Part shown: positions 13,262 through 34,454 of the stretch, one piece after another
Position numbering within the stretch: position 1 is the stretch's first letter
Layout: each line of letters starts with the position of its first letter
Position numbers and translations under genes: made by a program
Notes under the pieces: generated by a model
What the model was told of the DNA's origin: nothing
Seen by the model: only the letters and a program-made list of their open reading frames with translations
Database searches by the model: none
Origin: a virus
Virus record (IMG/VR): IMGVR_UViG_3300033149_002836
Span: 1-46,811 of that record
Direction: 5' to 3' (one strand)
Length of the DNA stretch: 46,811 nt

Positions 13262-14410
13262 TTACTGAAGGTCTCTCAGCTTACCCTGACCATAGAGGAA
13301 CCTAGCCGTAACCTCACCGACGAATCTGTAAACGCCCCTCACCACGAACTTGTTGAGAAGGACGTAGTCCCGACTCTCAAAGTATTCCACGGGCCTCAGA
13401 ACTGATATGCTCATCCGTGGGAACCCATAGCCCTCGGGATCGCTGCAATCAATCGCATAAATCCTAGATATGCCGTCCGCCGGACAATCAACAGACTGCA
13501 CAACCGGAATTCCATAGAGAGAAGCCACCTGAACTCCGGCCTCAAGCCCCGCAGCCGTTTGAATGCCGTTAACACCGAACTGAGCCTTCGTCTCGCTCAT
13601 CGGGCTGTAACGCACAAACGTCATATAGAGGCCGAGCATCGTGGCATAAGTATCATATCCGGTTAGCAGCACATTCGTATTCGCACCACGGCTCCGAGTA
13701 TTCTGGAGAAGCGTCCTAATCAGATCATCAGTAAGGTCTCTGTTAGAAGTGGAATCGTTCACATAAGCATTCGCCCATGAATTCGCAGAATCCGATCGGT
13801 CAATCCCATAGACATCTTCCCAACCAGCCGTAAAGCCCTGTTCACCAGCCTTAGAGATAATCCTGTCAAGCGAAGTCAAAGTGTTGGCCCTGCTAGACTT
13901 CGCCTCGGCAACTTTGTGCAAAAGCTGCTTGTTAATCAGCTTGACGAACTCCGTTCCGACCTCGGCCCTGACCTGATGAGCCGCGCCCCAAATATCGTCC
14001 GCACTCACACTTGACAGAGCCTCAACCACGTCGGTAACGTCGAACACTTCGGTCTGAATCTTCGGAGTCGCATACACCATATCAATATCGGGATACACCG
14101 CGCTCGGAAGCGTCCCCGTCTCGGTAATCGCAATATCCGTATCGGTGGACGTTCCCATAGCCTTCTTAACACGCCATCCCGACCTGACCCAAGTGGTCTT
14201 AGGCAGCATGCCGAAAGCATTTGCTTCCTGATTAAGCTGCGCCCACACTAGAGAGCCGTAAATCTTGTTAAGAATGCCGCTAGTCGAAGTCGAAATCGTC
14301 CCCGTCGATTTCATAATCTCTAGCAGATCGCCATGGAGAACAAACGGGTGCTGAGTAGCCCCGGTGTAGAACATTTCTATATCTTCAGCCGTTATGAATC
14401 TCGCATCCAT
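13262..14410 (-). CDS. Major capsid protein (HK97 fold)
   Basis: A 382-residue protein following protease and scaffold genes. The helical N-terminal arm leads to an EVFDVTDVVEALSSVSADD spine-helix region, a P-domain with NVLLTGYDTYATMLG, and a C-terminal SLYGIPVVQSVDCPADGISRIYAIDC strand pair typical of HK97-type capsid proteins (nominal-residue-then-name pattern such as G-IPVV-S). Hundreds of copies would form the icosahedral head. No upstream delta domain: scaffolding is provided by the separate gene at 14422-14961. ATG 14408-14410 follows GGTGAGTTGAG. Confidence 0.88.
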   Translation of the reverse strand: MDARFITAEDIEMFYTGATQHPFVLHGDLLEIMKSTGTISTSTSGILNKIYGSLVWAQLNQEANAFGMLPKTTWVRSGWRVKKAMGTSTDTDIAITETGTLPSAVYPDIDMVYATPKIQTEVFDVTDVVEALSSVSADDIWGAAHQVRAEVGTEFVKLINKQLLHKVAEAKSSRANTLTSLDRIISKAGEQGFTAGWEDVYGIDRSDSANSWANAYVNDSTSNRDLTDDLIRTLLQNTRSRGANTNVLLTGYDTYATMLGLYMTFVRYSPMSETKAQFGVNGIQTAAGLEAGVQVASLYGIPVVQSVDCPADGISRIYAIDCSDPEGYGFPRMSISVLRPVEYFESRDYVLLNKFVVRGVYRFVGEVTARFLYGQGKLRDLQ

Positions 14411-15043: not shown

Positions 15044-16324
15044 TTACTCACTTTCACCGAGCTTCGCTTGAAGAGAACCACAGATACGCTTAGCAGACTC
15101 ATCGTTATAGCCCTGAGACTTCATATCCCTAACACAATCATCAAAACTCTGCCACTTACCGAAGGGCTTTCGAACATCCCTAAGAGCCTTCTTAAGATCG
15201 ATCCGCGACTTCAAAAACTTGACATAATTAGCAGTCTTTTCAAATTGTTTCCTCACATCGCTCGCCAGCTTCCGAACCTCACTCGAAATCGACTCTGCCT
15301 CAGAACCCTTATCGCCCGGAATCTTCCCGGCCTTCCGACCAATATACGCACAGAGCTTCCTCGCCCTCTCCTCAGAGAGGCCCTTACCGCCAACCTTCGG
15401 AGAAGCCATAGCCCATCTAACACAGCCCTCGAATCCGCCCTTAAACGAGCCGTCCGGATTGATCCACCGCGACCGATCCTTATGAACCTCAAGCTCTTTC
15501 AAAGCCTCTTCAACCTCAGACTCATCGACATAGCCCTTAATCTTTCCAGCCTTCCGACCGATATAGGCGCACAAAGCCCTAGCCCGCTCCTCAGAGTCAA
15601 GACCATAGCCGCCCTCACTCTTCGGAGCCATAGCCCACTCGACACAGCCCTCAAAGCCATTCTTAAACGTTCCATCGGGATTAATCCACTTCGACCGATC
15701 CTTATGCACATCGAGAAGCTCAACCGCTTTCTCGAAATCATCCGGAGTCGAAGCATCTTCAAGCTCTTCAGCCCGCTTCTCCGGAATCTTCTCAGCCTCA
15801 CTCTCAAGCTCATTCATAGCGGCATCCCCCTTCGCAACATAATTCACTTCATCGACAAGAGCTAGAGGATTCGCTGGCTCCTCAACAACACTCACTTCCA
15901 TAAGAGAAAGATCACGGAGAATACCGACCTCTTTAGGCAGCCCCGTCGAATCGTCCTTAAGGACTTTCTTCTCCTCACGCGCAGTCGCACCGATAGAAAA
16001 GCCCGTAAGCTCACCCTTCTTAATCTTCTCCCAAACAATATCATCCACCGGATAATCGCTGAAAATCTTAGCAATGAAATGAATACCGAGAGCCTTCGTA
16101 TCCGGATGCTCTTTCACTTCCCATTGCAAAATCTTACCGACGGGCTTGTTAGAATGACCATAGATGATATGACCGCCCCGATCCATCAACGTCAACATCG
16201 ACCGCTTCAACTCTGAAACCGGAACAATATCACCCTCTTTATCCAAAACGCTAACAGAAGCCCAACCACTAACAAGCCTCTTATCTTCATCCTTAATTTC
16301 AATCTGACGTGGCTTACCGCTCAT
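15044..16324 (-). CDS. Prohead maturation protease (S78-like) with triplicated Cys modules
   Basis: A 426-residue protein. Residues 1-165 are the serine protease: GHIIYGHSNKPVG (H57), ELTGFSIGA (S110) and LMEVSVVEEPANP, the herpesvirus-like/HK97 prohead protease signature. It cleaves scaffold and capsid proteins during maturation. Residues 207-263 and 281-337 are two near-identical modules (HKDRSRWINPDG, GFEGCV-WAM, SEERAR-LCAYIGRKAGKI); a third diverged copy lies at 387-423 (FGKWQSFDDCVRDM, SAKRICG). Each carries a paired cysteine. Cys-pair tails of the third type are known behind phage proteases, but three copies are unusual. ATG 16322-16324 follows GGGGGAG; an upstream TTG is less likely. 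Confidence 0.88.
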   Translation of the reverse strand: MSGKPRQIEIKDEDKRLVSGWASVSVLDKEGDIVPVSELKRSMLTLMDRGGHIIYGHSNKPVGKILQWEVKEHPDTKALGIHFIAKIFSDYPVDDIVWEKIKKGELTGFSIGATAREEKKVLKDDSTGLPKEVGILRDLSLMEVSVVEEPANPLALVDEVNYVAKGDAAMNELESEAEKIPEKRAEELEDASTPDDFEKAVELLDVHKDRSKWINPDGTFKNGFEGCVEWAMAPKSEGGYGLDSEERARALCAYIGRKAGKIKGYVDESEVEEALKELEVHKDRSRWINPDGSFKGGFEGCVRWAMASPKVGGKGLSEERARKLCAYIGRKAGKIPGDKGSEAESISSEVRKLASDVRKQFEKTANYVKFLKSRIDLKKALRDVRKPFGKWQSFDDCVRDMKSQGYNDESAKRICGSLQAKLGESE

Positions 16325-16353
16325 AAACAACTCCCCCAAATCATTACACAGAG

Positions 16354-17392: not shown

Positions 17393-20300
17393 TTATTCGC
17401 CGAAGAGCCTGACAGAAACCGAAGCCCCCTCAAGCTCAACATCCGTCGAAGCCCCCTCAATATCGACACCGCTCGAAGCCCCCTCAAGCTCAACCAATCC
17501 AAGCGAATACGCTACAACCTCACCGACCGCACCGAGAAGCCGCACCGCAGCAGTAACCATCACCGCAACAATATGAAGCGGAGTAGCCGAATCGAGAAGG
17601 CCGATAATATCGCTCCAAGTAGCCGCAGCACCGCGAGACAACACATCCGAAACACCAATCGAATCCCACCGAGACACAAGCCCCGCCTTCAAGATCGAGT
17701 CAGACGCAGCAAGAAGCTCCGCCAAAACCCGCGACAATCCGCTGAAAGACACATCGCTAAGACCAATCGAATCAGACAGAACACTCCCCGCAGAAAGCCG
17801 CCTAGAATCCGACACACCGATATAATCCACCAGAGAAGCCACACAACCCCTAACAGAAATATCAACCAGCCCAACAGACTCAACAAACTCCCTAACCAGA
17901 GAAACAACACTCCCAAAAGAATCCGCCATAGAAACAGAATCATAAATCCTCTTATCCGCATCCCGAATCTCTAAATCGATTAAATCGATATAATCGGAAA
18001 GAATCGATACCGAACTCTTCGCAATAGAATCAGCAATACCTAGAAGCTCCAGAAGCGACGCAACCCTATTCACAATCCTCGAATAGGCATCCAACAATCC
18101 GACAGAATCAGACAGAAAGACCGAGCCGCCCCTAGACACACCGTCCAGCAAGCCGACCGAATCGACAAAGACCCTCACCGCATCCCAAATCCAACTCAGA
18201 GAATCCGACACCGCGACAAACTCCAACCGCCGCATCTCCGCAATCTTCGAAACAGCATCCGAAGCATCAACCCGATCAACCAGAGACCGAGACAAAAACT
18301 TCGCAAAATAATCCATAGCACCTAGCCTATCAGACAGAAAAATCGATGAAAATGAAACAAGCCCATCTAAAGCTCCAATCGAGTCAAACAAGCTCTCTCC
18401 AGCCTTCTTCAGAACACTATCCGACACTCCAATAGACTCTAACAAAGTCTGAAGATATGTGAAAATCGCCGAAATAGAGTCGGAGAGATCGATATTCTCA
18501 TCCAACAACTTTGATGACGCAGAGAAGGTCGAATCCGCAATCCCAACACTCTCCGAAAAAGCCCGAATAATCGACAGCACCGAGCCAAACGAATCCGACA
18601 ACCCAACAAACTCAGCCCTAAAAACCGCCAAATCCAAGAAAATCGAATCCGACACATCAACCTCATCGCTCAGAAACTTATCCGCCAAAACCGACGAAAC
18701 ATCCGAAACACCAACAGACTCGACAAAACGCCTAAAGATCGAAGAAACCGATCCAAACGAATCAACAACCCCAATATTCTCCCACAAAGACTTCTCCGCC
18801 AAAGCCAAAGACGTATCAGACACACCGATACTCTCACTCAAAAACCTGAAAGCCTCAAAAACCGACCTGAAAGAATCAGCAAGTCCAACACCATCAACCA
18901 AAGCCTTCGCTGCCAAAACCGGAACAACATCCGAAAGCCCAATACTCTCCCCGAAAAGCCTAGACAGCGACACCGAAGAGAAATCAGAAACACCGACGCT
19001 CTCAGCAAACGTCCTGACAAACGATAAGATAGATGAAACCGTATCCGAAACACCAAGACACTCCTCAAAGCCCCTACCCACCGAAGCCGACGGAGAATCC
19101 GAAAGACCGACCTTCTCAAGCAAAGCCCGAACAAACGACAAGATAGACGAAACCGAATCCGAAAGACCAATCTCCTCAGCCAGAGGCTTACCTGACAAAA
19201 CCAACGAAGAATCAGAAACACCGACAGCATCACTCAAAAGCCGAATAATCGCCAAACTCGACAAAACCGAATCAGAAACACCGATACTCTCAACCAAAGC
19301 TCGAACAATCGACAAAACTGACTCAAACGAATCAGAAAGACCAACACACTCAAACTGCAACTTAGCCGCCAAACTCCGAATCGAATCAGAAACCGCAACC
19401 GAATCGCTCCGAACAACCGACCCGCCTAAAGATTGAGAATCCGACAGAGCAAGCAAATTCGACCACACAACAGAAGAGAAAAAGAATCTCATATCGTCTA
19501 AGCCTAAAGCATCCACCTTCATAGCAGACATATACAACCGCCTAGCATCAAGCATCCCCAAAACATCTACCTTAGAAAGAGACGAAAGCGACTGCCTAGA
19601 ATCCGACAAGCCCAAAACATCTGAAAGCGTTAAATATGTCACAGCAACCTCTTCCGACCCCCAACTACCGTGCGAAGGCTCTGGATCAGCATACTTCCGC
19701 ACCGCTACCCAATACCAGCGATCCGTCTCGTAGCCGTCGCCACCGCTACCCGTCCCCCAATGATTATTGAATAGGCGAATAGCATAATCGCTATTAGAAT
19801 CCCACGTCCATCCCTGCGAATATGTGTGAGTCACTTGTCTATGAACATCAGTAACCGTATCATAGAAATCCACATAGAGACTGCCATCAGTAGCCCTCAT
19901 CGTAATCTCATGTAGATTATTCTTATTGAGCAGAAAACCCGTTATCCGCGTATATGCACCAGAACCCTGATACATCTCATAAGCTTGAATCTGATTTGTG
20001 TCAGCATCAATAGGAGTCCCACTTAACCAACTAGTCTCATCTACAAGTTTAATTTGCAATGACAAATAGTTACCCCTATCCCAATGCTGCGTAATCACAG
20101 CTTCAGCCAAAACCTCAACTTCTTGTCCCGCAAATGTATCGAGAGACCTTACAACCTCTTCATAATCCCTAGAACCATCCTCGGTTTGAATCTGCAAATA
20201 GCCATCCGTCTCGGAAACCGAGCCATTAGCAACATCTTCAGTCCAGCGATCGCTCCATGATCCATCTTCAAAATCGTCAAAAACAAGAAACGTATTGAAC

Positions 20301-20638
20301 CCATTGCTAGTAGTAGTAGCATCGCTCTTCCCATAGTAGATATAAATCGTGGTTGAGTCTGGACTAGCCGGGATATTCGGAATCTCAACCCAAAACGTGG
20401 CAGTAGAACCATCGTATTCCTTCAACCAATAATCGAGAAGCGTCTCACCATCCGAAGCTGTAAATCTTATGTCTCCAAAGTCAGTCCTACACTTCGTCCC
20501 GACATAGACATTCTCATCGTCATCCGTCCCCGACGATCTATGAACAACAATCCGCACCTGATAATCACTAACCGCCCCCGCAGTAGAGCCATTAATAGAA
20601 TGAGACTTCCGATATTGCCAGCCGCTTAGCCACGCCAT
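17393..20638 (-). CDS. Giant repeat fibre with DUF2341 and lectin-like domains
   Basis: A 1081-residue protein. Residues 1-110 are a DUF2341-type domain (YQVRIVVH, GDIRFTASDG, LLDYWLKEYDG, IYIYYGKSDAT). Residues 115-325 look like a concanavalin/LamG fold (DDFEDGSWSDRW, LHEITMRATDGSLYVDFYD). Then about 37 tandem units (near residues 335-1025), each starting [VI]G[VL]SDS, run without interruption and are either 18 or 20 residues long. The C-terminus has three 9-residue ELEGASxxV units and ends VRLFGE. This is probably the receptor-binding fibre or spike: lectin-like head plus solenoid shaft. It is not a membrane protein despite hydrophobic repeats. ATG 20636-20638. Confidence 0.82.
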   Translation of the reverse strand: MAWLSGWQYRKSHSINGSTAGAVSDYQVRIVVHRSSGTDDDENVYVGTKCRTDFGDIRFTASDGETLLDYWLKEYDGSTATFWVEIPNIPASPDSTTIYIYYGKSDATTTSNGFNTFLVFDDFEDGSWSDRWTEDVANGSVSETDGYLQIQTEDGSRDYEEVVRSLDTFAGQEVEVLAEAVITQHWDRGNYLSLQIKLVDETSWLSGTPIDADTNQIQAYEMYQGSGAYTRITGFLLNKNNLHEITMRATDGSLYVDFYDTVTDVHRQVTHTYSQGWTWDSNSDYAIRLFNNHWGTGSGGDGYETDRWYWVAVRKYADPEPSHGSWGSEEVAVTYLTLSDVLGLSDSRQSLSSLSKVDVLGMLDARRLYMSAMKVDALGLDDMRFFFSSVVWSNLLALSDSQSLGGSVVRSDSVAVSDSIRSLAAKLQFECVGLSDSFESVLSIVRALVESIGVSDSVLSSLAIIRLLSDAVGVSDSSLVLSGKPLAEEIGLSDSVSSILSFVRALLEKVGLSDSPSASVGRGFEECLGVSDTVSSILSFVRTFAESVGVSDFSSVSLSRLFGESIGLSDVVPVLAAKALVDGVGLADSFRSVFEAFRFLSESIGVSDTSLALAEKSLWENIGVVDSFGSVSSIFRRFVESVGVSDVSSVLADKFLSDEVDVSDSIFLDLAVFRAEFVGLSDSFGSVLSIIRAFSESVGIADSTFSASSKLLDENIDLSDSISAIFTYLQTLLESIGVSDSVLKKAGESLFDSIGALDGLVSFSSIFLSDRLGAMDYFAKFLSRSLVDRVDASDAVSKIAEMRRLEFVAVSDSLSWIWDAVRVFVDSVGLLDGVSRGGSVFLSDSVGLLDAYSRIVNRVASLLELLGIADSIAKSSVSILSDYIDLIDLEIRDADKRIYDSVSMADSFGSVVSLVREFVESVGLVDISVRGCVASLVDYIGVSDSRRLSAGSVLSDSIGLSDVSFSGLSRVLAELLAASDSILKAGLVSRWDSIGVSDVLSRGAAATWSDIIGLLDSATPLHIVAVMVTAAVRLLGAVGEVVAYSLGLVELEGASSGVDIEGASTDVELEGASVSVRLFGE
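17560..19640 (-). repeat. Tandem 54/60-bp coding repeats of the fibre
   Basis: Imperfect DNA repeats, each coding for one LSDS unit. On the plus strand they appear as recurring ATCCGACA/ATCAGAAACACC boxes. Units are 54 or 60 bp; neighbours often share long stretches (for example units with FGSVLSIIRA and SSILSFVRAL), so the array has grown by duplication and is likely to vary in copy number. Confidence 0.85.
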
Positions 20639-20649
20639 TCAATCGACCA

Positions 20650-21066
20650 TCACACAATTTCTCTAGAAGCAATCTTCCCATCCGAATCGAGATACAAAAG
20701 ATAAGACTTCCTAGAGACCGTGCCATCGCCATTATCTACAAAACCTCGAACAACCGCATATTTCCCCGCCCTGATAACATTAATAGACTCTGGAACAAGA
20801 AACAGCGACGCGGCAACCGACTTGACTTGATCCTCTAAAGGGTCAGAAGCCGTCTCCAAGCTCGGCCTAGAATCTTTGAAATAGGCAGCTTCCTGATCTG
20901 TCCCTTCATTCTCAACATATATACAAATCGCCACCTCTCGAATAAAATCATCTTGCTCCCTAATCCTAAGCCTATAAAACTTGTATGGCCCATGCTCCTC
21001 TATCAGAGAAACATCCGCTACCTTCGGATTCGACTGCAAACGTTCAACAAGCTCCGAAAGATTCAA
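20650..21066 (-). CDS. Hypothetical protein upstream of the repeat fibre
   Basis: A 138-residue alpha/beta protein with KVADVSLIEEHGPYKFYRLRI, VAICIYVENEG, a helix (LEDQVKSVAASLFLV) and a terminal strand set (KYAVVRGFVDNGDG, SYLLYLDSDG). Start is TTG 21064-21066 behind GGTGATTC, with a promoter at 21096-21113. It opens the fibre transcription unit. No family recognised; a minor virion protein is likely from location. Confidence 0.65.
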   Translation of the reverse strand: MNLSELVERLQSNPKVADVSLIEEHGPYKFYRLRIREQDDFIREVAICIYVENEGTDQEAAYFKDSRPSLETASDPLEDQVKSVAASLFLVPESINVIRAGKYAVVRGFVDNGDGTVSRKSYLLYLDSDGKIASREIV

Positions 21067-21095: not shown

Positions 21096-21113
21096 CTTAT
21101 TTAACTTTTACCC
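21096..21113 (-). promoter_or_regulatory. TATA-like promoter for the fibre unit
   Basis: The minus strand reads GGGTAAAAGTTAAATAAG, about 30 bp before the TTG start at 21066 and overlapping the stop of the zinc-ribbon gene. Confidence 0.5.
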
Positions 21114-21406
21114 ATCAAAACTCCCTCACGCACCAACCGATCCCCGCATCTCGGACAGACAAGATCGGTGCATGGAATCCCGGCTCGCTTCGCCACTCGA
21201 TAGCCACAACTCATACAAACACAGAAGCCGCCCGGCCCCTCATTATTCCCCGGCTTCGGCTCAGGCTTAGCTCTGCCGAGACCCATCTTCTCTAAATCCT
21301 CATCCCAAACAATCTTCGCCTTCTTTAGACGCTCCCGCCTCTTATGAAGCCAGCTTCCACCGAAGAGAACATCCTCGGTAAGCACCGCACCGTATTCATC
21401 ACTCAT
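21101..21406 (-). CDS. Zinc-ribbon protein
   Basis: A 101-residue protein whose second half reads FCVCMSCGYRVAKRAGIPCTDLVCPRCGDRLVRE: CMSCG and CPRCG form a classic four-cysteine zinc ribbon, with extra cysteines nearby. Similar C-terminal ribbons accompany head-morphogenesis proteins in archaeal proviruses. It overlaps the double-ART gene stop as ATGA (ATG 21404-21406), so both are co-translated. Could be a partner or chaperone of the ART protein; that is inference. Confidence 0.75.
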   Translation of the reverse strand: MSDEYGAVLTEDVLFGGSWLHKRRERLKKAKIVWDEDLEKMGLGRAKPEPKPGNNEGPGGFCVCMSCGYRVAKRAGIPCTDLVCPRCGDRLVREGVLMGKS

Positions 21407-23679
21407 TCTTCATCACCTTTAAACGTAGGTAAATTCCACTTCTTGAGAACCTGATCTACCGCAGCTATAACCTTCTCCCTCTTCTCAAAATCTTGGATCG
21501 AAATCGCAGAATAAACCGCAATCTTCCGAATCTTCTCTGCAAATCTCTTATACTCATCAGCATCATACATAAAAGAAAGATCAGAAAGCTCCGAATCATA
21601 AAACAGCTTATTGACATTGAAAAGCCCGTCTATAAGAGTAACAAAATAATCCGGTTGCTCCTCAGCCAGCCGCCTCAACGTCTGACTAACATTCTGCGGA
21701 ACAATCGCATCTGCACCATACCAATCAAGAAACTTGCTCCATGTCAAAATCACATCGGTCGCACTAATATCTTCAGCCCGCCCCGCCTTAATCTTCTTAA
21801 CCGCCTGACCAATCATCTTAGCCCACGAATAATTCCAAATACCCTTACTCTCAAACGGCTCGACCTCAAGCCCGCCTTCGGGAATTTCAACAACAATCTC
21901 CCGCTCTATCTCATTCCACGGCTGATGCATAAACCACCAGCCCGCTACAACTTGCTTATAGTTAATCTTAGCCCTAATCGCAACACCAAAATGCCGAGCA
22001 ACCTTCGGATCATCAGTAAAACTCATCGCAACACCAAACAACTTCGGCTTAAGCCCCGTCGCCATACAAAGCGCAATCTGATCGGCTCCGAAGCCACCAA
22101 CCCCTCGATAGAGATAATCAGACTCACCATAAAACTCTCTGAAAATCTCCTCAGAGATTGCCTTATGCTTAACAAGTGTAATGAAATCTTCCCGCGTCGC
22201 AGTTTTCAGCTTTCCCTGAGCAAATCGCTTCGGACGCGCCAATCTATGATTACCGCGAAGCTCTTTCAACACATTATCCAAAGTAACCGCAGCAATACCT
22301 TCAGTTTCACCGCTACACCAATCCCGACAAGCCCGCAGCGAAGCCGAAATAACCTTAGCCGCCTTCTCACCGAAAATCCGCGCCAAAAACTCTTCGCTAT
22401 GACCATAAAGCGTCTCAGCCGACCTGAAAATCGAAATCTTATCACCAAAGTTATTGATAAACTTATCCGGAATCTCTAGATAATTAATCTCTAGCGGCTT
22501 ATCCGGCTTCAAATCCTCTTCTGTAATCCCACGCTCCTCTAGCTCTCTCCGATCAATAAACTTCCCGCCTCTAGGCCCCTGATAAACCGTCAAGCCCTTC
22601 GGCAACTTCTCCGGATCAAGCCCCGAAAGATAAACCCTAAACTCCTCTGGAACCTCAGACTGTTTAGCCACGCCCTTCTCCTCACCGACAATCCGAACCG
22701 GAGAAACATTCTTCCCGCTCCAGACTCGCCACTCTTTCTCATACTTGTTGTAAGTATATCGATCCGACATATCCTCATCATAGAGATTGATCTCCGGCCT
22801 GAAACGAAGCTTCGGAGAAGGCCGAGCCTCAACAATCTTAATATCCTCTGGCTTAACCCCCGCCAGATTCGGCTCTCCGACAAAGAGAACAATCTTCCCG
22901 TCATTAGGAGCAAAAGCAAACAAATGCTTAAACACTTCCCAAATAAAACTCGGAGCATTAAACGGCCCGTAATCCATACCCTCTCGCTCGGCCTTCCCCC
23001 GCTCATCCGGATGACTTATAAGATACTGATGCATCGTCATCTCGAAAGACCCTGCAAACGGCCCATCCGTCCCGAGCATCTTCTTAACCCAATCCCGCAA
23101 ATCCGCAAGCTTAGCCGCACCATTCAAAATCCGACAAGCCATCCTCATATTCTCCTGATAAATCCGAGCATTCTCCAAAGTAGTGAAAGATACATAGCTC
23201 CCATGACCGCCAAAGCCCGAAACACCAAGCTCTTTAGCCGTCTTGAACCCCTCTTTCATAATCGCATCCGCATGGGGAGTCGCATGATAAACCTTATCCG
23301 GAATCTTAACAATATCATCCGGCCCAACCACACCGGAAGTAATCCAATCACGATACCTCTCAAGCTCTTCCGCAGTAGCCTCTTCATAAAGCCAATCCGG
23401 AAACCACTCCGGAAAATCGCTCTTCGGTGGCTTGCCATCTCCGCCCTCTTCGCCCTCCTCTTCCGGTGGCGGAAAATTCTCCAACAAATCCGGATCAAGC
23501 CGATTCGCAATGATCTCCCGTCTATCCACATAGAGACCGCCTTTAGGCCCCCGATAAACCTTAATCCCCTTCGGAAGCATACTCGCATCGACATGAGAAA
23601 TATAGATACGATACTCTGGCGGGACATCTTGCTTCTCAATCGTCTTAACAGCTTCATCCGGAAGAATCAAAACCGACAT
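21403..23679 (-). CDS. Double ADP-ribosyltransferase-like protein of the head module
   Basis: A 758-residue protein; ATG 23677-23679 overlaps the portal-MuF stop as TAATG behind GGGGGAG. Order: module 1 (residues 20-56: RIYIS...PKGIKVYRGPKGG, DRRE); an acidic linker; ART-like domain 1 (about 125-285: VYHATPHADAIMKEGF, GSYVSFT, GKIVLFVGEP); module 2 (343-378: RVYLS, PKGLTVYQGPRGG, DRRE); helical region; ART-like domain 2 (about 505-605: YLYRGVGG with R525, MSFTDDPKVARHFG with S553, NEIEREIVVEIP with E592/E594), matching the R-S-ExE motif of arginine-type ADP-ribosyltransferases; then a helical tail. Virion location is inferred from the gene order and the module shared with the portal protein. 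It could be injected to modify host proteins, as T4 Alt is. Confidence 0.75.
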   Translation of the reverse strand: MSVLILPDEAVKTIEKQDVPPEYRIYISHVDASMLPKGIKVYRGPKGGLYVDRREIIANRLDPDLLENFPPPEEEGEEGGDGKPPKSDFPEWFPDWLYEEATAEELERYRDWITSGVVGPDDIVKIPDKVYHATPHADAIMKEGFKTAKELGVSGFGGHGSYVSFTTLENARIYQENMRMACRILNGAAKLADLRDWVKKMLGTDGPFAGSFEMTMHQYLISHPDERGKAEREGMDYGPFNAPSFIWEVFKHLFAFAPNDGKIVLFVGEPNLAGVKPEDIKIVEARPSPKLRFRPEINLYDEDMSDRYTYNKYEKEWRVWSGKNVSPVRIVGEEKGVAKQSEVPEEFRVYLSGLDPEKLPKGLTVYQGPRGGKFIDRRELEERGITEEDLKPDKPLEINYLEIPDKFINNFGDKISIFRSAETLYGHSEEFLARIFGEKAAKVISASLRACRDWCSGETEGIAAVTLDNVLKELRGNHRLARPKRFAQGKLKTATREDFITLVKHKAISEEIFREFYGESDYLYRGVGGFGADQIALCMATGLKPKLFGVAMSFTDDPKVARHFGVAIRAKINYKQVVAGWWFMHQPWNEIEREIVVEIPEGGLEVEPFESKGIWNYSWAKMIGQAVKKIKAGRAEDISATDVILTWSKFLDWYGADAIVPQNVSQTLRRLAEEQPDYFVTLIDGLFNVNKLFYDSELSDLSFMYDADEYKRFAEKIRKIAVYSAISIQDFEKREKVIAAVDQVLKKWNLPTFKGDEE

Positions 23680-26240
23680 TACTCGGACTCCCCCTCTCTC
23701 GGCTTTCGATACGGACACTTCAATTCTCCCTCTCTAAATACCTTCGGAATCCCCTTATAGAACACACCGCAACTCAAGCCGCCAGAATAATACTTACAAG
23801 TCCGGCATTGCTCCGAGACCTTCGCCTCAGCTACTCGTTTCTCATTCAACTCTTCCCGATCCACATAGAAGCCGCCCTTCGGCCCGCGAAAAACTTTCAC
23901 TCCCTTCGGAACTTTGCTAGGATCAGTAATATAGACTCGCCTCTCACTCGGAACAATCTGTTTCTCCGCCTTCCCCTTCTCCCAATACCGCTTCTTTCCA
24001 TAGACCCTGATAAAGCGGCAGCGATCGCCCGGATGCACAAGCCACTCCCGAGCCGAATCACCGCCAACCTCTTTAATCAGCCGCTTCAACTCATCAAGAG
24101 TCACACCGCCCTTAGTCATCTCCGCCAGCTTCCTACACTTCTCACAGACCCTCTGATCCCGAGCCGTATCCCACCGAAACTTAGTCACATACGTCTTATC
24201 TTTGTAGGCAATCTCCCGAGCCTTCTGCGCAATATTCGCCAACTCCGTCCGAACAATAAGATCGGCCTGATCCTTATCAACACTAGTCTTAGAGACAAGC
24301 TCATTCACAATAGCCTCTCGATTGTAATTCTTCTGAAGAACCGCCTTCAAGATGATGCCATTGATCTTCTGCGCCTGACGCTGAGAAAGCCCCGAATACC
24401 GCTTCCAAAACTCGGCCTGATCCAAAGCCGCATATCTCGCATCGCCATAATGCCGAACCGCCTTCGACCAATTCGCCTTAATAACATCGAAATCCTCATC
24501 ATCCGTATATGTAACCCACAACAAGTCCTCTTTCTTAAAATCCGCAACATCGAGATCGGAAGCCTCTCCAGATTGAATCTCCGGCTGATACTCTATCGCA
24601 CCGCCCTCTCCAATCGTCCCGACAACCTGACTCTTCGGCTGCCTAATCCCCGTCTCCTCACCTTCAAACCGCTGATTCTCAGATGACGGCCTCTGATGAA
24701 TCGGCTCGCCCTCAAATCTCTGGAACCGCCTCATAGAGATCGGCCTATTGCGAATCGAGACAAGCTTGTTCGGAATCTCCGCCCCCGTCTCATCGATAAA
24801 GTCAAAGTCAAGACCGTCCTCACCGATAACCGCCCTCGGCTTGTAGCCCAATTGAGCCATAGCAGCCGCATTTTGAATCCGCAATTGCTCCCTCTGAAGC
24901 TTCGCCACAATATCACGGCCCTCATTCGGAATAAGCTCAATCGTCCAATCTTGAATTCCTAGCTGATCCATAAGCCACGGCAAAACCTTCTTATTATAGA
25001 TTTCTTGCTCGATCTCAACCGCCCGATTCGTAACCAAAATCTGGAGACCTTCATTCGCCAGACCGAAGCCGCTCGAAGTATCGCCCGTAAAGATCGGCAT
25101 GACTCCCCAAAGCGCACCGATCGTCCGCCTCATCTCCTCACGGAATTGAATAAAATCAATATCGGTAGATCGGAGAGTCAAGTCAAGCCACTCAACCACA
25201 TTTCGAACATCCTTACCGCCCTCAATAATAAGCGGATAGATCATGTGCGGATTGATCCGAGACTCTTCCTGAAGCCGTCTCCAAGCCTTATCAATCGACT
25301 CTCTATTCCCCTTCAGGATCAGCAATCCCTTCGGTGGCCTCTCAAGATGATAAGCCGTAAGAATGAAGTAATCCTGTTTCATCAAAATCATAACCTTCTG
25401 CCAGACAGAGAAAACAGGCGGCAACCCATAGCCAATCCCCGAAGTAAACTTCTTGAAATGAAGAATCTCCCCATTCGTATAATAGAGATACTTGCCACCG
25501 CTACTCTTCAAAACCCTATAATAAGCCGGATAAAGCTTCTTTCCGCAGACATCGCACCGCGCATCTTCCGCCTTATCCTCTTCCACAAGCTTATACTTGT
25601 CCCGGTGTTCGAGACAGAACAAGACAACCCTACCGTCATCGCTCCGACCGAACCGACCATCCCGATCCATAACAAAGTGAATTCGCTCCGGAGATGCTCG
25701 AAGAACCTCAAGCGGCTTCGCACCGACAACCGCACCATCCTCATCGTAGAAATACTGTTTCACCACCGCGATAAACGCATTGTCAATAATGTTCACATCC
25801 GTATCGACATCCCGCAGCACATCGAGAAGAGACTGATCGTTAAAATTGACATCCTTAACCCAATCCTTCAAGTATTGATACTCTTTGATATTCGGCTCCC
25901 GCAGCTTCTTAGAGCCACAGACCTCGCAATGATCCACCACCGTCGAATACTCTGCGCCACAAATCGTGCATTTAACCGCGAACTTCTTAGAAATCGCCAA
26001 TCCATTCCTAAACGTCTCATGCGTAATCGACCGGACAATCGTCCTGAGAAGATCGGAATACTGATAGAGATCATAACAGAAGCGGAAGCCCATAAACGGA
26101 ATCGTCGGCATCTTAGCTATATCCGAGACCCCGCGCGTCAAGAAATCCGGCCCCGTCGGTCGGAAATACTCCGCAGCCCGATTACTTCCATTAGCCTTTT
26201 TGACTCCAACCACACTCTTAAGCTTATCGACAAATGACAT
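23679..26240 (-). CDS. Portal protein fused to MuF head-morphogenesis domain
   Basis: An 853-residue fusion. Residues 1-520 are a portal (SPP1/HK97-like) with LLRTIVRSITHETFRNG near the start, YLYYTNGEILHFKKFTSGIG, FILTAYHLERPPKGLLIL and GVMPIFTGDTSSG. Two cysteine pairs (CTICG...CEVCG, about 90-110; C...CDVCG, about 220-245) are inserted and should bind zinc. Residues 560-745 are MuF-like (IVRTELANIAQKAREIAY, WDTARDQRVCEKCRKL, HPGDRCRFIRVYG). Residues 755-795 carry the PKGVKVFRGPKGG-DREE module found twice in the next gene; a final cysteine cluster (CRTCKYYSGGLSCG, KCPYRK) follows. The portal is the DNA gate of the capsid. ATG 26238-26240. Confidence 0.9.
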   Translation of the reverse strand: MSFVDKLKSVVGVKKANGSNRAAEYFRPTGPDFLTRGVSDIAKMPTIPFMGFRFCYDLYQYSDLLRTIVRSITHETFRNGLAISKKFAVKCTICGAEYSTVVDHCEVCGSKKLREPNIKEYQYLKDWVKDVNFNDQSLLDVLRDVDTDVNIIDNAFIAVVKQYFYDEDGAVVGAKPLEVLRASPERIHFVMDRDGRFGRSDDGRVVLFCLEHRDKYKLVEEDKAEDARCDVCGKKLYPAYYRVLKSSGGKYLYYTNGEILHFKKFTSGIGYGLPPVFSVWQKVMILMKQDYFILTAYHLERPPKGLLILKGNRESIDKAWRRLQEESRINPHMIYPLIIEGGKDVRNVVEWLDLTLRSTDIDFIQFREEMRRTIGALWGVMPIFTGDTSSGFGLANEGLQILVTNRAVEIEQEIYNKKVLPWLMDQLGIQDWTIELIPNEGRDIVAKLQREQLRIQNAAAMAQLGYKPRAVIGEDGLDFDFIDETGAEIPNKLVSIRNRPISMRRFQRFEGEPIHQRPSSENQRFEGEETGIRQPKSQVVGTIGEGGAIEYQPEIQSGEASDLDVADFKKEDLLWVTYTDDEDFDVIKANWSKAVRHYGDARYAALDQAEFWKRYSGLSQRQAQKINGIILKAVLQKNYNREAIVNELVSKTSVDKDQADLIVRTELANIAQKAREIAYKDKTYVTKFRWDTARDQRVCEKCRKLAEMTKGGVTLDELKRLIKEVGGDSAREWLVHPGDRCRFIRVYGKKRYWEKGKAEKQIVPSERRVYITDPSKVPKGVKVFRGPKGGFYVDREELNEKRVAEAKVSEQCRTCKYYSGGLSCGVFYKGIPKVFREGELKCPYRKPREGESE

Positions 26241-26268
26241 TTCAACCAACCTCTATTTACCCACAGCA

Positions 26269-26284
26269 CTTTTAAATTGTTTCC
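26269..26284 (-). promoter_or_regulatory. TATA promoter for portal operon
   Basis: The minus strand reads GGAAACAATTTAAAAG, 29 bp before ATG 26240; the TAA inside it is the stop of the upstream gene. Confidence 0.6.
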
Positions 26285-26586
26285 ACATCCTCTTTTACCT
26301 TCTCGAAAACCATCGTCGGCCTCTTAACCGTTCCATCCGGATACGTTACCTCTAGCTGAAGCTCAACCACATCAATATCATCCGAGTCTTGAATCCTAGC
26401 CACAGCCCGATCAAGATCAAGCTCAATCGATTTAAGCGACAGCTTCCTAGAATTTGAAAACTCGGATCGATCACCAATCTCCGGAAGATCATGGACAATC
26501 CTCTTCCCAGAATACACCCTAGCCGACTTAACTATAATCTTACTCGGCCTCTGTCTCCGATATGCAACTGCTAAAGGCAACTCCAT
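26272..26586 (-). CDS. Hypothetical beta-rich virion protein
   Basis: A 104-residue protein starting ATG 26584-26586 behind AGGTGG. Alternating strands (SKIIVKSARVYSGKR, KLSLKSIELDLDRAVARI, VVELQLEVTYPDGTVKRP) suggest a beta-sandwich like small tail-associated proteins. It follows the hub/fibre gene by 9 bp and closes the tail operon. No family recognised. Confidence 0.65.
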   Translation of the reverse strand: MELPLAVAYRRQRPSKIIVKSARVYSGKRIVHDLPEIGDRSEFSNSRKLSLKSIELDLDRAVARIQDSDDIDVVELQLEVTYPDGTVKRPTMVFEKVKEDVETI

Positions 26587-26595
26587 AAAACCACC

Positions 26596-29500
26596 TCAGC
26601 TAACCTGATGATAATGTTGACGAATCTCTTTAACATCGCAAGCAAATTGAACTTGAATATCGTTATTGACATCGAGATTCACAATCTTCGCTTGAATCGA
26701 TCCCTGATTACCCGAACTAAGAAAGTCCGTAAAAGTCAGCCCAACCCACTCGCCTGTTGAAATCCAATCCCTAATAACAGTCCTAGCCACCGTTCTAGAA
26801 TTCGATCCATCATGCCAAATCACAAGTAGCTCAGCCGGAGCATCAGTCGCATCATTAGCCGACGCAAGACTGAAACCAACAAACCCTGAGATCACGCGCA
26901 AATATGAAACCGAAGAAATCGTCCAACTGTAACTAGTATAATCATCAGCATAGACTATATAAGTCGAAGTCCAACTGAAAGATTGCGACCGAGTCATCCC
27001 GACACTCTTATCCGACGTATCAACCGGGAACTTTGGAATATACTCAACCGTATCTGAGTCCGTCCTAAATCGCAACTGATTAAGATCGCTCCGCCACCAA
27101 AGCTCCCCGCCATCTCCGCTCGGATCAGAAGTCGTCCTATCGAGATCAAGCTTAGAGGTAGTCACGGCTCCAGCCGCAATTTTGTCTGCGGAAATCGCTC
27201 CAGCAGCAATCTTATCAGCAGAAACCGCCCCTGATGCAATATGATTTGAAAGAATAGAATTTGCAGCAATCACATCAGCTTGAATATTAAGACCCTTCGA
27301 GTAGAATGGTTGAATCGCCACTTCCGTATTTGATCCCAAAACAATCGCTAAAATCCCCCGATCTGGCCCGATAGCCGTCGCATAATTCGAAGTGTAATGT
27401 AAATAGTTATCTCCAACAACAAAATATACAAAGTAAGTCGTTCCCGCTGAAAGATCGCCGCTCGAACTCCCCGCATAGATCGTCTGAGTCGATCCATCCG
27501 CAAATTTAATCGTTCCGGAAGTCCATTCTACATCCGTCGGTGGATCGCTCGGAGAAAACTTAATATTTGAATTGAATGGCTGAACTCCCTTCGCTAAAGC
27601 ACTTGCCGTAATCGCGCCCGTGGCAACCTTATCAGAAGTAATCGCATCATCCGCAATCTTATCGGTTGTCACCGCCAATCCATTGATCTTCTCAGTAGTA
27701 ATAGAATTCGCCACAATCTTATCAGCAGTAACCGAATCAACCGAAAGCTTCTCAGCAGTCACCGCCCCGGCATCGAGCTTATCCGTAGTGATTGCTCCAG
27801 AAGTAATCTTATCTGCCGTAACCGCTCCAGCAGCAATCTTATCAGCCGTAACCGCACCGGAATCGAGCTTATCAGTATTAATCGCACCGGACTTAATATG
27901 ATTCGAAAGAATGGCATTTGCAGCAATCATATCGGCTTGAATATTCATCCCCTTCGAATAGAATGGTTGAATGAATACTTCTTGCTCCGAATCAGAGCCT
28001 CTCCCCACAACCGCGAGAAGGCCCTTATCGTCCCCAATCGCATTCGAATAAGTCGAAGTGTAGCTCAAATCCGCAGAGCCAACCGTGAAATAAATATAGT
28101 AAGTCGTATTCAATGACAAATCAGAAGTCGATCCCGCATTAATCGATTGAGTCGATCCATCCGCAAACTTGATCGTTCCAGAAGTCCATGAAACCCTAGA
28201 AGTCGGATACGTCGAATCTGGAGAAAACCTGATATTCGAGTTAAACGGCTGAACCCCCTTCGCCAAAAGACTCGAAGTATGGATAACAGTCGAATGCCGC
28301 GCATCGTTCAAATATTGAGGATGATCGTCAGCATCAAGATCGTCAAGCTGAGAATGAGACTTCGTAGCAATAAAGACCCAACTCGAACCGTTCCACCGAT
28401 AAAACTTGTTGTCATCCGTATTGAACCATACATCGCCAACCGCAGCCTCAGAGCTAAAAGCATTCATCTCATCGGTCGTTCCCTGATGCGCAATCGTCGC
28501 CAAAGCCTTCCAACTCGAACCGTCATAATAGTAAGACTGCCCCGCATTCACAACATAGACCACATCGCCCTTCTTAGCACTCAGACTAGAAAGATCGGAA
28601 ACACTTGTAACCGACCGGACTCCCCGCAGAACCGCAGTCCAACTCGAACCGTCCCATCGATAAAGCGTCAAAGTATCCGTCGCATAATACCATTCACCAA
28701 CCGTATTCCCCGTTCCTTTATCCGAATCAAGACCAGACCGAGATAGTCGCACAACAACATCCCAATCAGCAGCAGTAGAACAAACATCCTCACGGCAACG
28801 ATACAAAAGACCCCGATCTGACCGATAGAATAATTCTCCCTTCGTCGCATAAGCCGGGAAAGAAGTCCCCGAATTCGTCTGAACAACCAACTCCCACTTG
28901 TCATCCGCAGCATTGTATCGATATAACTTACCCACATCCGACCTAAAAAACAATTGCCCCGAAACGGGATTTGACGGGAAAGAATCTCCAGAAGGTATGG
29001 GAATCTGCGTCACCGAAATCGGATAAATCCCAAAGTCCTCATAATTCTTCGTCTCTTCGAGATATTGCTCCAAAAGTTTTTCCGCCTGATCCACCTCAGC
29101 CTCAGCAATATTCATTTTCTTCGTAATCCGGTAAATCTTGTAAGTCCCATCGAGATTAAGCTCCGGAGCCGAAATCGTAACCGTATCGCCCGGATCAAAA
29201 TTATATGCCTCAGAAATCTTCAGCGAAATCTTAGCACCGCTAGCCGTGGTGTTCAACTTGTTGAGAAGCGCATTTGCCAGCTTTTGAAGCGTCGCCTCAT
29301 CCGAAGCCTTCGTCCCCTCGACCCTAGTCACATAGACATCGCTCCCCGTTCCCGCAGAGACTTCAACCCTATTCCCATCGTTATCCACACCGATAACAAT
29401 CACTTTGTTACGCGCCTTCGACCTATCGATTCCGCGTCTAGCCACCGAGAGAACTGTAACCGATCCGCGAGACGTTCCCCGCGTCCCAATATTGAACCGT

Positions 29501-29967
29501 GGATTATCAGAAGCATCAAAATCGCTCCAGAAATCGTATCCGCCAACCTTCGCCAGATACTTCCCCGCTTCGAGACAATTCGTCTTATCGAACCGCAGAG
29601 ATGCCGAGTCACTCGGAGCCGACCCCGCTGTAACCCCCGCAGCCGTGCAAATATCCGAAAGAATCGTCGAATATGAAGCATCATCATAGCTCGCAGTTAT
29701 AATCCGTCTTTGCATTTGCTCATAGCAAGAATCGTAAATCTTACACTCCAGAAGAGATCGATAATACTCAACACCGACAAGCTTACCCTTAAAGACAAGC
29801 GTCCCGTCCCACGAAATCTCAACCGTCTGATTCGAAGAAACCAAAGACCGATTCGACGAATTATTCTTGATACGGATGATCGCTTCTCTATGACCATTAA
29901 GCTCATCCATAATCGAGACTATCTGCGCTTTCACCGAAGAGCCGCCAATCGTAACGCTCCAACTCAA
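26596..29967 (-). CDS. Tail hub and fibre protein with repeated modules
   Basis: A 1123-residue protein. Residues 1-320 have a tail-hub (gp27/gpD-like) appearance: WSVTIGGSSV, VEISWDGTLVFKGKLVGVE, SYSTILSDICTAAGV, FDPGDTVTISAP. Residues 330-535 hold five degenerate units of the type GDVWFNTDDNKFYRWNGSSW. A module beginning LAKGVQPFNSNI...FSP is duplicated (about 568-689 and 792-905). Between and after lie pentadecapeptide-like units such as AVTADKIAAGAITTDKL (about 700-790 and 910-940), a pattern of trimeric fibre shafts. The C-terminal 150 residues are beta-rich. It likely joins the tail tip to host binding. Start is TTG 29965-29967 behind GGTGATG. Confidence 0.82.
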   Translation of the reverse strand: MSWSVTIGGSSVKAQIVSIMDELNGHREAIIRIKNNSSNRSLVSSNQTVEISWDGTLVFKGKLVGVEYYRSLLECKIYDSCYEQMQRRIITASYDDASYSTILSDICTAAGVTAGSAPSDSASLRFDKTNCLEAGKYLAKVGGYDFWSDFDASDNPRFNIGTRGTSRGSVTVLSVARRGIDRSKARNKVIVIGVDNDGNRVEVSAGTGSDVYVTRVEGTKASDEATLQKLANALLNKLNTTASGAKISLKISEAYNFDPGDTVTISAPELNLDGTYKIYRITKKMNIAEAEVDQAEKLLEQYLEETKNYEDFGIYPISVTQIPIPSGDSFPSNPVSGQLFFRSDVGKLYRYNAADDKWELVVQTNSGTSFPAYATKGELFYRSDRGLLYRCREDVCSTAADWDVVVRLSRSGLDSDKGTGNTVGEWYYATDTLTLYRWDGSSWTAVLRGVRSVTSVSDLSSLSAKKGDVVYVVNAGQSYYYDGSSWKALATIAHQGTTDEMNAFSSEAAVGDVWFNTDDNKFYRWNGSSWVFIATKSHSQLDDLDADDHPQYLNDARHSTVIHTSSLLAKGVQPFNSNIRFSPDSTYPTSRVSWTSGTIKFADGSTQSINAGSTSDLSLNTTYYIYFTVGSADLSYTSTYSNAIGDDKGLLAVVGRGSDSEQEVFIQPFYSKGMNIQADMIAANAILSNHIKSGAINTDKLDSGAVTADKIAAGAVTADKITSGAITTDKLDAGAVTAEKLSVDSVTADKIVANSITTEKINGLAVTTDKIADDAITSDKVATGAITASALAKGVQPFNSNIKFSPSDPPTDVEWTSGTIKFADGSTQTIYAGSSSGDLSAGTTYFVYFVVGDNYLHYTSNYATAIGPDRGILAIVLGSNTEVAIQPFYSKGLNIQADVIAANSILSNHIASGAVSADKIAAGAISADKIAAGAVTTSKLDLDRTTSDPSGDGGELWWRSDLNQLRFRTDSDTVEYIPKFPVDTSDKSVGMTRSQSFSWTSTYIVYADDYTSYSWTISSVSYLRVISGFVGFSLASANDATDAPAELLVIWHDGSNSRTVARTVIRDWISTGEWVGLTFTDFLSSGNQGSIQAKIVNLDVNNDIQVQFACDVKEIRQHYHQVS

Positions 29968-29980
29968 GCCGCATCACCGC

Positions 29981-30370
29981 CTACATAATGATATGGTCGG
30001 AGCCACGGACAAACCGCATCGTAAAAGAAAAAGCATCGACAAGACCACCGATCTCCTGAAAGCGAAACTCCGTCATGATCCACGTCCCGTCATATCGACT
30101 ATCCGGAGCCGTAATCGTAACCTCTTTATACACAAAGCTCTTCAGCTTCGAGATATAATTCGTCTCCAGAGTCGCGGCAGATGACCCCGCCTCATAAATC
30201 CATCCCGAAAGATCGAGAACTTCAGGCCCCTTCCCCAAACTCATAATGAAGGGAAAATCGCCCGGAATATCCATCGCTTCCGTCTTAGCCACCACTTGTA
30301 AACTCACATCCGTCGGATTAATCGGCAACGTTACCGAGTCATCCCCACAAGTAAACGTCCAATCCCCCAT
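29981..30370 (-). CDS. Distal tail / baseplate protein
   Basis: A 129-residue protein, ATG 30368-30370 with GTGAGG about 8 nt upstream (an ATG two codons earlier is also possible). PTDVSLQVVAKTEAMDIPGDFPFIMSLGKGPEVLDLSGWI and a final DAFSFTMRFVRG are the pattern of small siphovirus distal-tail/baseplate proteins that cap the tail tube. It sits between the tape measure and the hub gene as expected. Confidence 0.72.
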   Translation of the reverse strand: MGDWTFTCGDDSVTLPINPTDVSLQVVAKTEAMDIPGDFPFIMSLGKGPEVLDLSGWIYEAGSSAATLETNYISKLKSFVYKEVTITAPDSRYDGTWIMTEFRFQEIGGLVDAFSFTMRFVRGSDHIIM

Positions 30371-30380
30371 ATCCATCGCC

Positions 30381-31760
30381 TCACGGAAGCCGTCGCCTCA
30401 AAGCCTCAGCAATCCCGCGACTAACCTCATCTCGAATCGACGTAAGATTATCCACCGCAACCGACCCCACAGAAATCGGAGCATAGATTTGAACCGTCTG
30501 ACTCATCGCTCTCTGCCCAAGAGCATCGAGAAGCCGATTCGTCTGAGTCGGAGACAGCACCAATTCGTTTCCATGAAGATAATACAAGCCCTCTTCTGGA
30601 ACAAATCCGCCGAACTGCCGATTCTTCCCCCAAAGCCGTCCAACCCATCTAAAGCTGAAAAACTCTTTCAATCCGTCCACCGCATTTTTCACCGCGTCTA
30701 TCGCAGCTTTCACGCCAGCTAGAATCGAATCTAACGCCCATCCGACAATCTTCGACAACGCCCCATAGATGCTAGAGAGGATATTCCAAACATCGCCCAA
30801 TCGTTCTCCAACCCAATTAACCGCGCCTCTCACACCTGAAATCGCAGCATCCAAAGCCCATCCAACCATCTTCGAGAGAAAATCAGTCGCTTTTCCGAGA
30901 AGGTCTGAAACGAAGCTTATCACGCCTTTTACGCCCCGTATAATCGCAATCACAACAACAATCTGACCCACAATAAATCCAATCAGGCCCTTAATCGCGA
31001 AGAGAACACCGCCAGCAAACGCCTTCCCGATATTCTTAATATCCTCTTTCACCGGAGCAATGAAATCCATCAGCCAATCCCAAAGACCTCTAATCTCCTC
31101 GGCAAACTTCGCAACCATCGGCCTCATCCAATCATTAAACCGCTTCGCCAGACTCATCAACTCTTTCGCAATCGGAGCAATCGAGTAGCCCAAAATATCT
31201 CCAATCGGCTTCAAAAACAGATTCATAGCAGTCTCGAAAAGCCGCATCATCGCATTAAGAACCGGAGATGAAGTCCTAAATCGATCAAGAATCATCCGGC
31301 CCACATTGACAAGCGTCTTAAGCGAATAGAGAACTCCAGCCAGCAATACAATCCCCATCGTCATGCCGCCAGCACCGCTCAGAATTCCACCGATACCGCC
31401 AGCCGCAGCCTCACCGCCCGCAGCACCAGCACCAGCACCGCCAGCAGTAGCCGCTTGCATCCCCGCAACCGGAAGCAAAGACGCACCGCCCGTTCCACCG
31501 AAAAGCCCTAACGCCCTCTGAAAACCGCCCGCCAAAGCCGAAATCTCTCTCGGCATCATAGATTGAAGCATGTTAATCGCATCTTTCGGAATCTGAGCCT
31601 GAGCCTTCGCAATCTCCTGAGTCGATCGAACCACATCTTCCTTCATCCGCCTAGATTCTCTGCGAAAAGTATCCGCTACCCTCTGTTGAAGCTCTTGTAA
31701 CGATCGCTCAAGATCGTCGCTCGGAACAAGCCTAACGCTTATCGAGAGATCGGAACTCAT
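30381..31760 (-). CDS. Tape measure protein
   Basis: A 459-residue protein: N-terminal coiled coil (DDLERSLQELQQRVADTFRRES), an Ala/Gly-rich stretch (100-130), hydrophobic helices (GMTMGIVLLAGVLYSLKTLV and FIVGQIVVVIAIIRG), repeated FLSKMVGWALDAAISGVRGAV / KIVGWALDSILAGVKAAI helices, and a C-terminal GGFVPEEGLYYLHGNELVLSP typical of tape measure ends. It sets tail length and helps DNA cross the membrane. At the usual 0.15 nm per residue it implies a tail near 70 nm (inference). ATG 31758-31760 follows GGGGGAG. Confidence 0.85.
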   Translation of the reverse strand: MSSDLSISVRLVPSDDLERSLQELQQRVADTFRRESRRMKEDVVRSTQEIAKAQAQIPKDAINMLQSMMPREISALAGGFQRALGLFGGTGGASLLPVAGMQAATAGGAGAGAAGGEAAAGGIGGILSGAGGMTMGIVLLAGVLYSLKTLVNVGRMILDRFRTSSPVLNAMMRLFETAMNLFLKPIGDILGYSIAPIAKELMSLAKRFNDWMRPMVAKFAEEIRGLWDWLMDFIAPVKEDIKNIGKAFAGGVLFAIKGLIGFIVGQIVVVIAIIRGVKGVISFVSDLLGKATDFLSKMVGWALDAAISGVRGAVNWVGERLGDVWNILSSIYGALSKIVGWALDSILAGVKAAIDAVKNAVDGLKEFFSFRWVGRLWGKNRQFGGFVPEEGLYYLHGNELVLSPTQTNRLLDALGQRAMSQTVQIYAPISVGSVAVDNLTSIRDEVSRGIAEALRRRLP

Positions 31761-32272: not shown

Positions 32273-32290
32273 ACTAACCACCTTCTATCC

Positions 32291-33211: not shown

Positions 33212-33237
33212 CTAATCACCACCTAACCATACGAACC

Positions 33238-33258
33238 ACATTAATTTAAATCTTTCTC
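33238..33258 (-). promoter_or_regulatory. TATA promoter for tail tube operon
   Basis: The minus strand contains GAGAAAGATTTAAATTAATG, 27 bp before ATG 33211. Confidence 0.62.
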
Positions 33259-34453: not shown

Positions 34454-34454
34454 T

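What the first reader, a model, noticed from the sequence alone, without database searches (positions are those of the whole stretch)
21403..23679. A head-module protein with two ADP-ribosyltransferase-like domains
Seen: directly behind the portal-MuF gene, coupled by TAATG, lies a 758-residue protein with two separate ART-like cores. The second keeps R525, S553 (SFT) and E592/E594 (ERE), the R-S-ExE triad. Known: T4 packs Alt-type ARTs and injects them to modify host RNA polymerase; MuF proteins of other phages carry toxin domains. Inference: this virus may package or inject a double ART effector into an archaeon. The first domain has the H-type signature (VYHATPH), so the two halves could have different targets.
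Basis: partly seen in the sequence, partly recalled or inferred. Interest (0 to 1): 0.85.

Follow-up and report, generated by a model that had tools for sequence, protein, structure and literature searches.

The report
Archaeal virus effector with basic adaptors
Next to its DNA-entry gate gene, a tailed virus that probably infects archaea carries a protein with one likely enzyme domain that tags host proteins with ADP-ribose, a second possible one, and two copies of a small positively charged tag that also ends the neighbouring head protein and is joined to other enzyme-like modules in related viruses, as if it were a loading tag for cargo carried in the virus head.

Summary
The gene is real: minus strand, 758 aa, joined by TAATG to a portal-MuF fusion. 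The C-terminal ART-like core (R525, S553, E592-R-E594) is supported. Two related uncultured viruses carry a counterpart beside the portal: between portal and MuF in L010, just before the portal in G001. L010's protein keeps R, S and ExE and hits Pfam DRAT (E 2.5e-4). Haloarchaeal virus HCTV-5 has an annotated ART in the same portal-MuF interval, and a fold search independently picked HCTV-1 gp107 from that interval. Fold confidence is low, so catalysis stays inferred. The N-terminal "H-type ART" rests on motifs only: no profile, homologue or usable model supports it.

In relatives the same element joins an ART, HExxH proteins, a portal and other enzyme-like modules. In chlorovirus PBCV-1, adaptor-kinase proteins are packaged with DNA. 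Best reading: a virion-packaged modular effector loaded through its adaptors. ARTs at this position are known; the shared adaptor appears not to have been noted. New variant of a known kind.

The parts
21403..23679 (-). Effector gene, 758 aa: adaptor 1 - putative domain 1 - adaptor 2 - ART-like domain 2 - helical tail
   Evidence: TAATG junction
23512..23625 (-). Basic adaptor copy 1 (aa 19-56, VPPEYRIYISHVDASMLPKGIKVYRGPKGGLYVDRREI; pI 9.6)
   Evidence: PF08789 21.4 bits, over the 20.4 cut-off; leave-one-virus-out iE 2.9e-17
22660..23430 (-). Putative domain 1 (aa 84-340) with H-type ART-like motif VYHATPH (aa 130-136); unproven
   Evidence: motif only; no match in any library; fold pLDDT 44
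22540..22653 (-). Basic adaptor copy 2 (aa 343-380, VPEEFRVYLSGLDPEKLPKGLTVYQGPRGGKFIDRREL; pI 8.3)
   Evidence: leave-one-virus-out iE 7.4e-14
21862..22176 (-). ART-like core 2 (aa 502-606): R525 (22107-22105), S553 (22023-22021), E592 (21906-21904), E594 (21900-21898)
21406..21759 (-). C-terminal tail (aa 641-758), loosely alignable with L010 P0009
   Evidence: MAFFT alignment
23679..26249 (-). Portal-MuF fusion (856 aa), translationally coupled to the effector gene
   Evidence: 58% identity to the L010 portal over aa 1-527
23847..23954 (-). Third basic adaptor, near the C-terminus of the portal-MuF protein
   Evidence: leave-one-virus-out E 7.6e-11; PF08789 E 0.028, below its cut-off
15044..16339 (-). 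Prohead protease
   Evidence: 58% identity to the L010 counterpart in the protease domain; head maturation protease PHROG E 1.3e-21
13262..14410 (-). Major capsid protein
   Evidence: 64% identity to L010, 57% to L015; phrog_24667 E 6e-32

Best explanation
The gene encodes a modular effector that is packaged in the virus head and enters the host with the DNA. Short basic adaptors precede each effector domain and hold the protein to the head interior, to the portal-MuF complex (which ends in the same adaptor) or to the packaged DNA. After delivery the C-terminal R-S-E-type domain uses NAD+ to ADP-ribosylate host proteins early in infection, as T4 Alt does; the N-terminal domain is a second effector module of unproven chemistry. 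Shown: gene position and coupling, adaptors, conservation of the catalytic positions, and ART-like proteins beside the portal in relatives. Inferred: packaging, delivery, enzymatic activity, targets.
For: ART2: DRAT match over the R-S-E stretch; L010 counterpart DRAT E 2.5e-4 with R, S and ExE identical in the pairwise alignment; best non-self match among 3360 ORFs is that counterpart (phmmer E 4e-4); secondary structure around R525-E594 in ART order at pLDDT about 60-70; BFVD fold search hits an uncultured archaeal virus protein (E 4.4e-5) and HCTV-1 gp107 (E 9e-3), which lies between portal and MuF. Position: L010 has portal - adaptor/ART - MuF; the 89.7-kb virus G001 has adaptor/ART just before the portal; HCTV-5 has an annotated ART between portal and MuF, PF03496 E 5e-10 and an Alt-like PHROG match. 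Adaptor. Packaging: PBCV-1 A278L and A282L (kinase + basic adaptor) are virion, DNA-associated proteins with an estimated 397 and 533 copies (PMC3281028). Genomic surveys infer that head-gene-linked phage ARTs are packaged (PMC9503650).
Against: No virion proteomics for this virus or its close relatives. ART2 fold confidence is low overall (pLDDT 46.6, pTM 0.43) and no ART scored significantly in the PDB fold search. Pairwise sequence similarity of the cores alone is weak: 7 of 500 shuffles score as high in BLAST. The adaptor might be a general protein-interaction element rather than a packaging tag.
Confidence: 0.55

Rival explanations
1. The protein is a late-expressed ART that acts inside the infected cell (on host transcription or on virion assembly) and is not packaged; the adaptors only bring it to the portal-MuF complex or to viral DNA.
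For: TAATG coupling to the portal-MuF gene fits late co-expression; nothing tested here shows packaging.
Against: Adaptor proteins of PBCV-1 are found in virions (PMC3281028); head-gene-linked ARTs are generally inferred to be packaged (PMC9503650).
Confidence: 0.2
2. MuF-type polymorphic toxin: the protein is delivered to kill or inhibit competing cells or viruses and is paired with an immunity gene (the 101- and 138-aa genes just downstream are candidates).
For: MuF-linked toxins, including ARTs, are an established class (PMC5576092 and PMC3482391); small unknown genes follow directly (21101-21406 and 20650-21066).
Against: The ART is not fused to MuF and no known family is detected in the two downstream genes (PHROGs only); in HCTV-5 and L010 the ART gene runs straight into the MuF gene, leaving no room for an immunity gene directly behind it.
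Confidence: 0.1
3. A structural or internal head protein: the ART-like folds are inactive relics and the adaptors are head-assembly elements.
For: Adaptors also sit on the portal of L010 and on the MuF end in the window; an ART-like region in HCTV-1 gp107 lacks the ExE motif by eye.
Against: R525, S553 and ExE are kept in the window and in L010 despite low overall identity; the adaptor partners in relatives look enzymatic and are swapped between viruses.
Confidence: 0.13

Closest known systems
HCTV-5 gene 109 (M200_gp117, YP_008059150.1), annotated ADP-ribosyltransferase; also the ART domain of HVTV-1 gp115 (Druskaviridae)
   Same: ART in the portal-MuF-protease segment of an archaeal tailed virus, with diverged adaptor-like N-terminal repeats
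   Different: Clear PF03496 member; the window ART2 does not match PF03496. HVTV-1 gp115 also carries a zeta-toxin domain.
Bacteriophage T4 Alt and other packaged phage ARTs
   Same: R-S-E-type ART inferred to be carried in the head and delivered with the DNA
   Different: No detectable sequence membership for the window protein; Alt lacks this adaptor as far as I know (from memory)
Dinitrogenase reductase ADP-ribosyltransferase (DRAT, PF07357)
   Same: Best profile match of ART2 and of its L010 homologue over the R-S(-E) stretch
   Different: Below Pfam's cut-off (14.3 and 20.9 bits vs 25); no nitrogenase context
PBCV-1 A278L/A282L, kinase + PBCV-specific basic adaptor (PF08789)
   Same: Same adaptor family fused to an enzyme; proteins packaged with the viral DNA (PMC3281028)
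   Different: Eukaryotic algal virus, kinase instead of ART
Polyvalent proteins of phages (PMC5512222)
   Same: Multi-domain, head-linked, inferred to be injected
   Different: Here the domains are separated by one repeated basic adaptor, which a text search of that paper does not find ('PBCV' and 'basic adaptor': 0 hits)

Membership tests
ART superfamily, R-S-E clade (domain 2) | Conserved R, S(-x-S/T) and ExE at the three catalytic motifs | tested here: met
   R525, S553 (SFT), E592-R-E594; identical residues aligned in L010; R and the second E also in G001
ART superfamily, R-S-E clade (domain 2) | Profile match to an ART family above its cut-off | tested here: not met
   DRAT 14.3 bits vs 25; L010 homologue 20.9 bits, E 2.3e-4
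ART superfamily, R-S-E clade (domain 2) | Split beta-sandwich NAD fold | tested here: inconclusive
   ART-like order of elements at pLDDT 60-70 in the core, whole model low; PDB search not significant, best ART C3larvin E 2.7
ART superfamily, R-S-E clade (domain 2) | NAD+-dependent transferase activity | not testable with these tools
   bench assay needed
ART superfamily, H-Y-E clade (domain 1) | H, Y and E motifs with profile or fold support | tested here: inconclusive
   motif VYHATPH only; no profile hits; fold pLDDT 44
DRAT (PF07357) | Score over the curated cut-off | tested here: not met
PBCV basic adaptor (PF08789) | Score over the curated cut-off | tested here: met
   21.4 vs 20.4 bits for P0001 as a whole, best stretch aa 37-51, so only just over; the MuF copy is below the cut-off (15.0 bits)
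PBCV basic adaptor (PF08789) | Short basic repeat fused to different enzymes | tested here: met
   repeat and basic charge; different partner proteins: (partner chemistry partly by eye)
MuF-fused toxin / polyvalent effector | MuF or portal fusion or adjacency in the head module | tested here: met
MuF-fused toxin / polyvalent effector | Presence in virions | not testable with these tools
   no proteomics available here

The most novel reading that the evidence does not exclude
The basic adaptor is a cargo-loading tag used across unrelated double-stranded DNA viruses, from tailed viruses of archaea to chloroviruses, that fastens interchangeable enzymes (ARTs, kinases, proteases, zeta kinases) to the packaged DNA or portal-MuF complex for delivery into the host.
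Probability: 0.3. Interest if true: 0.82.

Novelty: new variant of a known kind. Interest (0 to 1): 0.6.

Why it matters
How tailed viruses choose which proteins to carry in the head is poorly known, and for archaeal viruses almost nothing is known (my own knowledge). A short element shared by the portal or MuF end and by swappable effector proteins gives a concrete, testable candidate for a loading tag, and it points to isolates (HVTV-1, HCTV-5) in which it can be tested. It would also give archaeal viruses an Alt-like early takeover step.

Tried and rejected
Direct searches for relatives of P0001 in viral contigs, genome contigs, phages and plasmids found none; relatives came only through degenerate DNA patterns for the adaptor. 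Portal alignment searches added no further relatives. PDB sequence searches gave nothing of note. The idea that the two halves of P0001 are duplicates of each other was rejected: beyond the adaptors no similarity is found. The fold of domain 1 and its fold search are uninformative. Reading the partner domains in relatives as kinase-like (L009) and amidoligase-like (L015) is by eye only; Pfam does not confirm it, and the protease reading rests on HExxH motifs only. The Pfam adaptor model alone does not find the haloarchaeal copies; only a profile built from the other viruses' copies does, and it weakens when the window copies are left out (E 0.02-0.4). A paper that I recalled as the HVTV-1 virion-protein study (PubMed 23283946) is not held, so any mass-spectrometry data could not be checked.

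Full report
Observation. The window is an IMG/VR virus record of 46.8 kb. On the minus strand a 758-aa gene (23679-21403) overlaps the stop of a portal-MuF fusion as TAATG.

Context. The upstream gene is a portal (phrog_18178 E 3.5e-42) fused to MuF, 58% identical over the portal part to an uncultured virus fragment L010. Downstream lie the prohead protease and major capsid protein, so the gene sits in the head module. Among named viruses the portal is closest to those of haloarchaeal and Methanomassiliicoccales viruses; the window also has an archaeal-type primase large subunit and a family B polymerase. An archaeal host is likely.

The adaptor. Pfam finds the PBCV-specific basic adaptor (PF08789) in the protein just above its cut-off. 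A second copy lies at aa 343-380 and a third near the end of the portal-MuF protein. Profiles built without any window sequence recover the two effector copies at E 1.4e-30 and the MuF copy at 7.6e-11 among 3360 ORFs. The adaptors are basic (pI 9.6 and 8.3) while the domains between them are acidic (5.5 and 5.7). A degenerate DNA pattern for the adaptor, scanned over all viral contigs, found related viruses: L010, with an adaptor on a portal that also carries an HExxH motif and another on an ART-like protein; L013/L015, with an adaptor on a large protein encoded just upstream of the portal; and L009 (genome G001), with two adaptors in one large protein near the terminase, one in an ART-like protein next to the portal, and one in an HExxH protein. 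Diverged copies flank the zeta/ART proteins of HVTV-1 and HCTV-5.

The second domain. Evidence that it is an ART: (i) DRAT profile match across the R-S-E stretch, weak for the window (E 0.024) and better for L010 (E 2.5e-4); (ii) R, S and ExE identical in the window-L010 alignment at 26% identity; (iii) a third homologue in G001 with the R and second E aligned; (iv) a profile comparison with the HVTV-1 gp115 middle region in the correct R/S register (single-comparison E 0.0017, but HHalign probability only 15%); (v) an AlphaFold core with the ART order of elements at pLDDT 60-70; (vi) a BFVD fold match to HCTV-1 gp107, the protein between portal and MuF in that virus. Against: no score above a curated cut-off, no significant PDB fold match, and 7 of 500 shuffles reach the pairwise BLAST score of the cores. 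I put the ART assignment at about 0.8.

The first domain. Only the motif speaks for an H-type ART; every library search, both tblastn searches and the fold model are negative or uninformative. I put it at about 0.35.

Known background. HCTV-5 gene 109, between portal and MuF, is annotated as an ART and scores PF03496 5e-10; HVTV-1 gp115 has zeta and ART domains; ARTs in HVTV-1 and HCTV-5 are mentioned in PMC8651126. PMC9503650 infers that ARTs near head genes or fused to MuF are packaged. PBCV-1 A278L and A282L, kinases with the basic adaptor, are DNA-associated virion proteins (PMC3281028). A full-text search found the phrase 'basic adaptor domain' together with 'virion' in that one paper only, so the link between the adaptor and tailed-virus head effectors appears not to have been made in the papers held here.

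Mechanism, with steps marked. Shown: gene coupling to portal-MuF, repeated adaptors, catalytic residues. Inferred: adaptors load the protein into the head, on DNA or on the portal-MuF complex; the protein enters with the DNA; ART2 modifies host proteins; domain 1 is a second effector.

Verdict. The finding is real but half of its central claim is unproven and the stronger feature was missed. New variant of a known kind, interest 0.6.

Noticed in passing
L016:4423-8364 (HVTV-1 gp115) and L018:8312-12193 (HCTV-5 gene 114): Zeta-toxin proteins in the head module with adaptor-like repeats; HVTV-1 gp115 also ends in a PF03496 ART (E 1.4e-8), and HCTV-5 114 is annotated with a ParB-type nuclease instead.
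   Followed up: partly
L003:6766-9912 (HVTV-1 gp113), L010:1349-4561, L036:1203-2252: HExxH (metallopeptidase-like) motifs in adaptor-bearing or adaptor-like proteins; no Pfam match.
   Followed up: partly
L015:11146-13524 and L009:3341-5689: Large adaptor-bearing proteins near portal or terminase that look amidoligase-like and kinase-like by eye; not confirmed by Pfam.
   Followed up: partly
window 37199-39575: A DUF2201 metallopeptidase/VWA-like protein next to an AAA ATPase, a MoxR-VWA-like pair in a virus.
   Followed up: no
window 17393-20638: 1081-aa protein with an N-terminal DUF2341 domain and many VGVSDS-like repeats, probably a fibre.
   Followed up: no
window 23679-26249: Portal with Cys-pair (zinc-ribbon-like) motifs, and Cys pairs after the MuF adaptor.
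   Followed up: no
window 26272-35126: Tail genes lie upstream of the portal gene in transcription order, an unusual order that may reflect circular permutation of the record.
   Followed up: no
window 3739-4407 and 9768-10748: ERCC4-type nuclease and archaeal-type primase large subunit.
   Followed up: no
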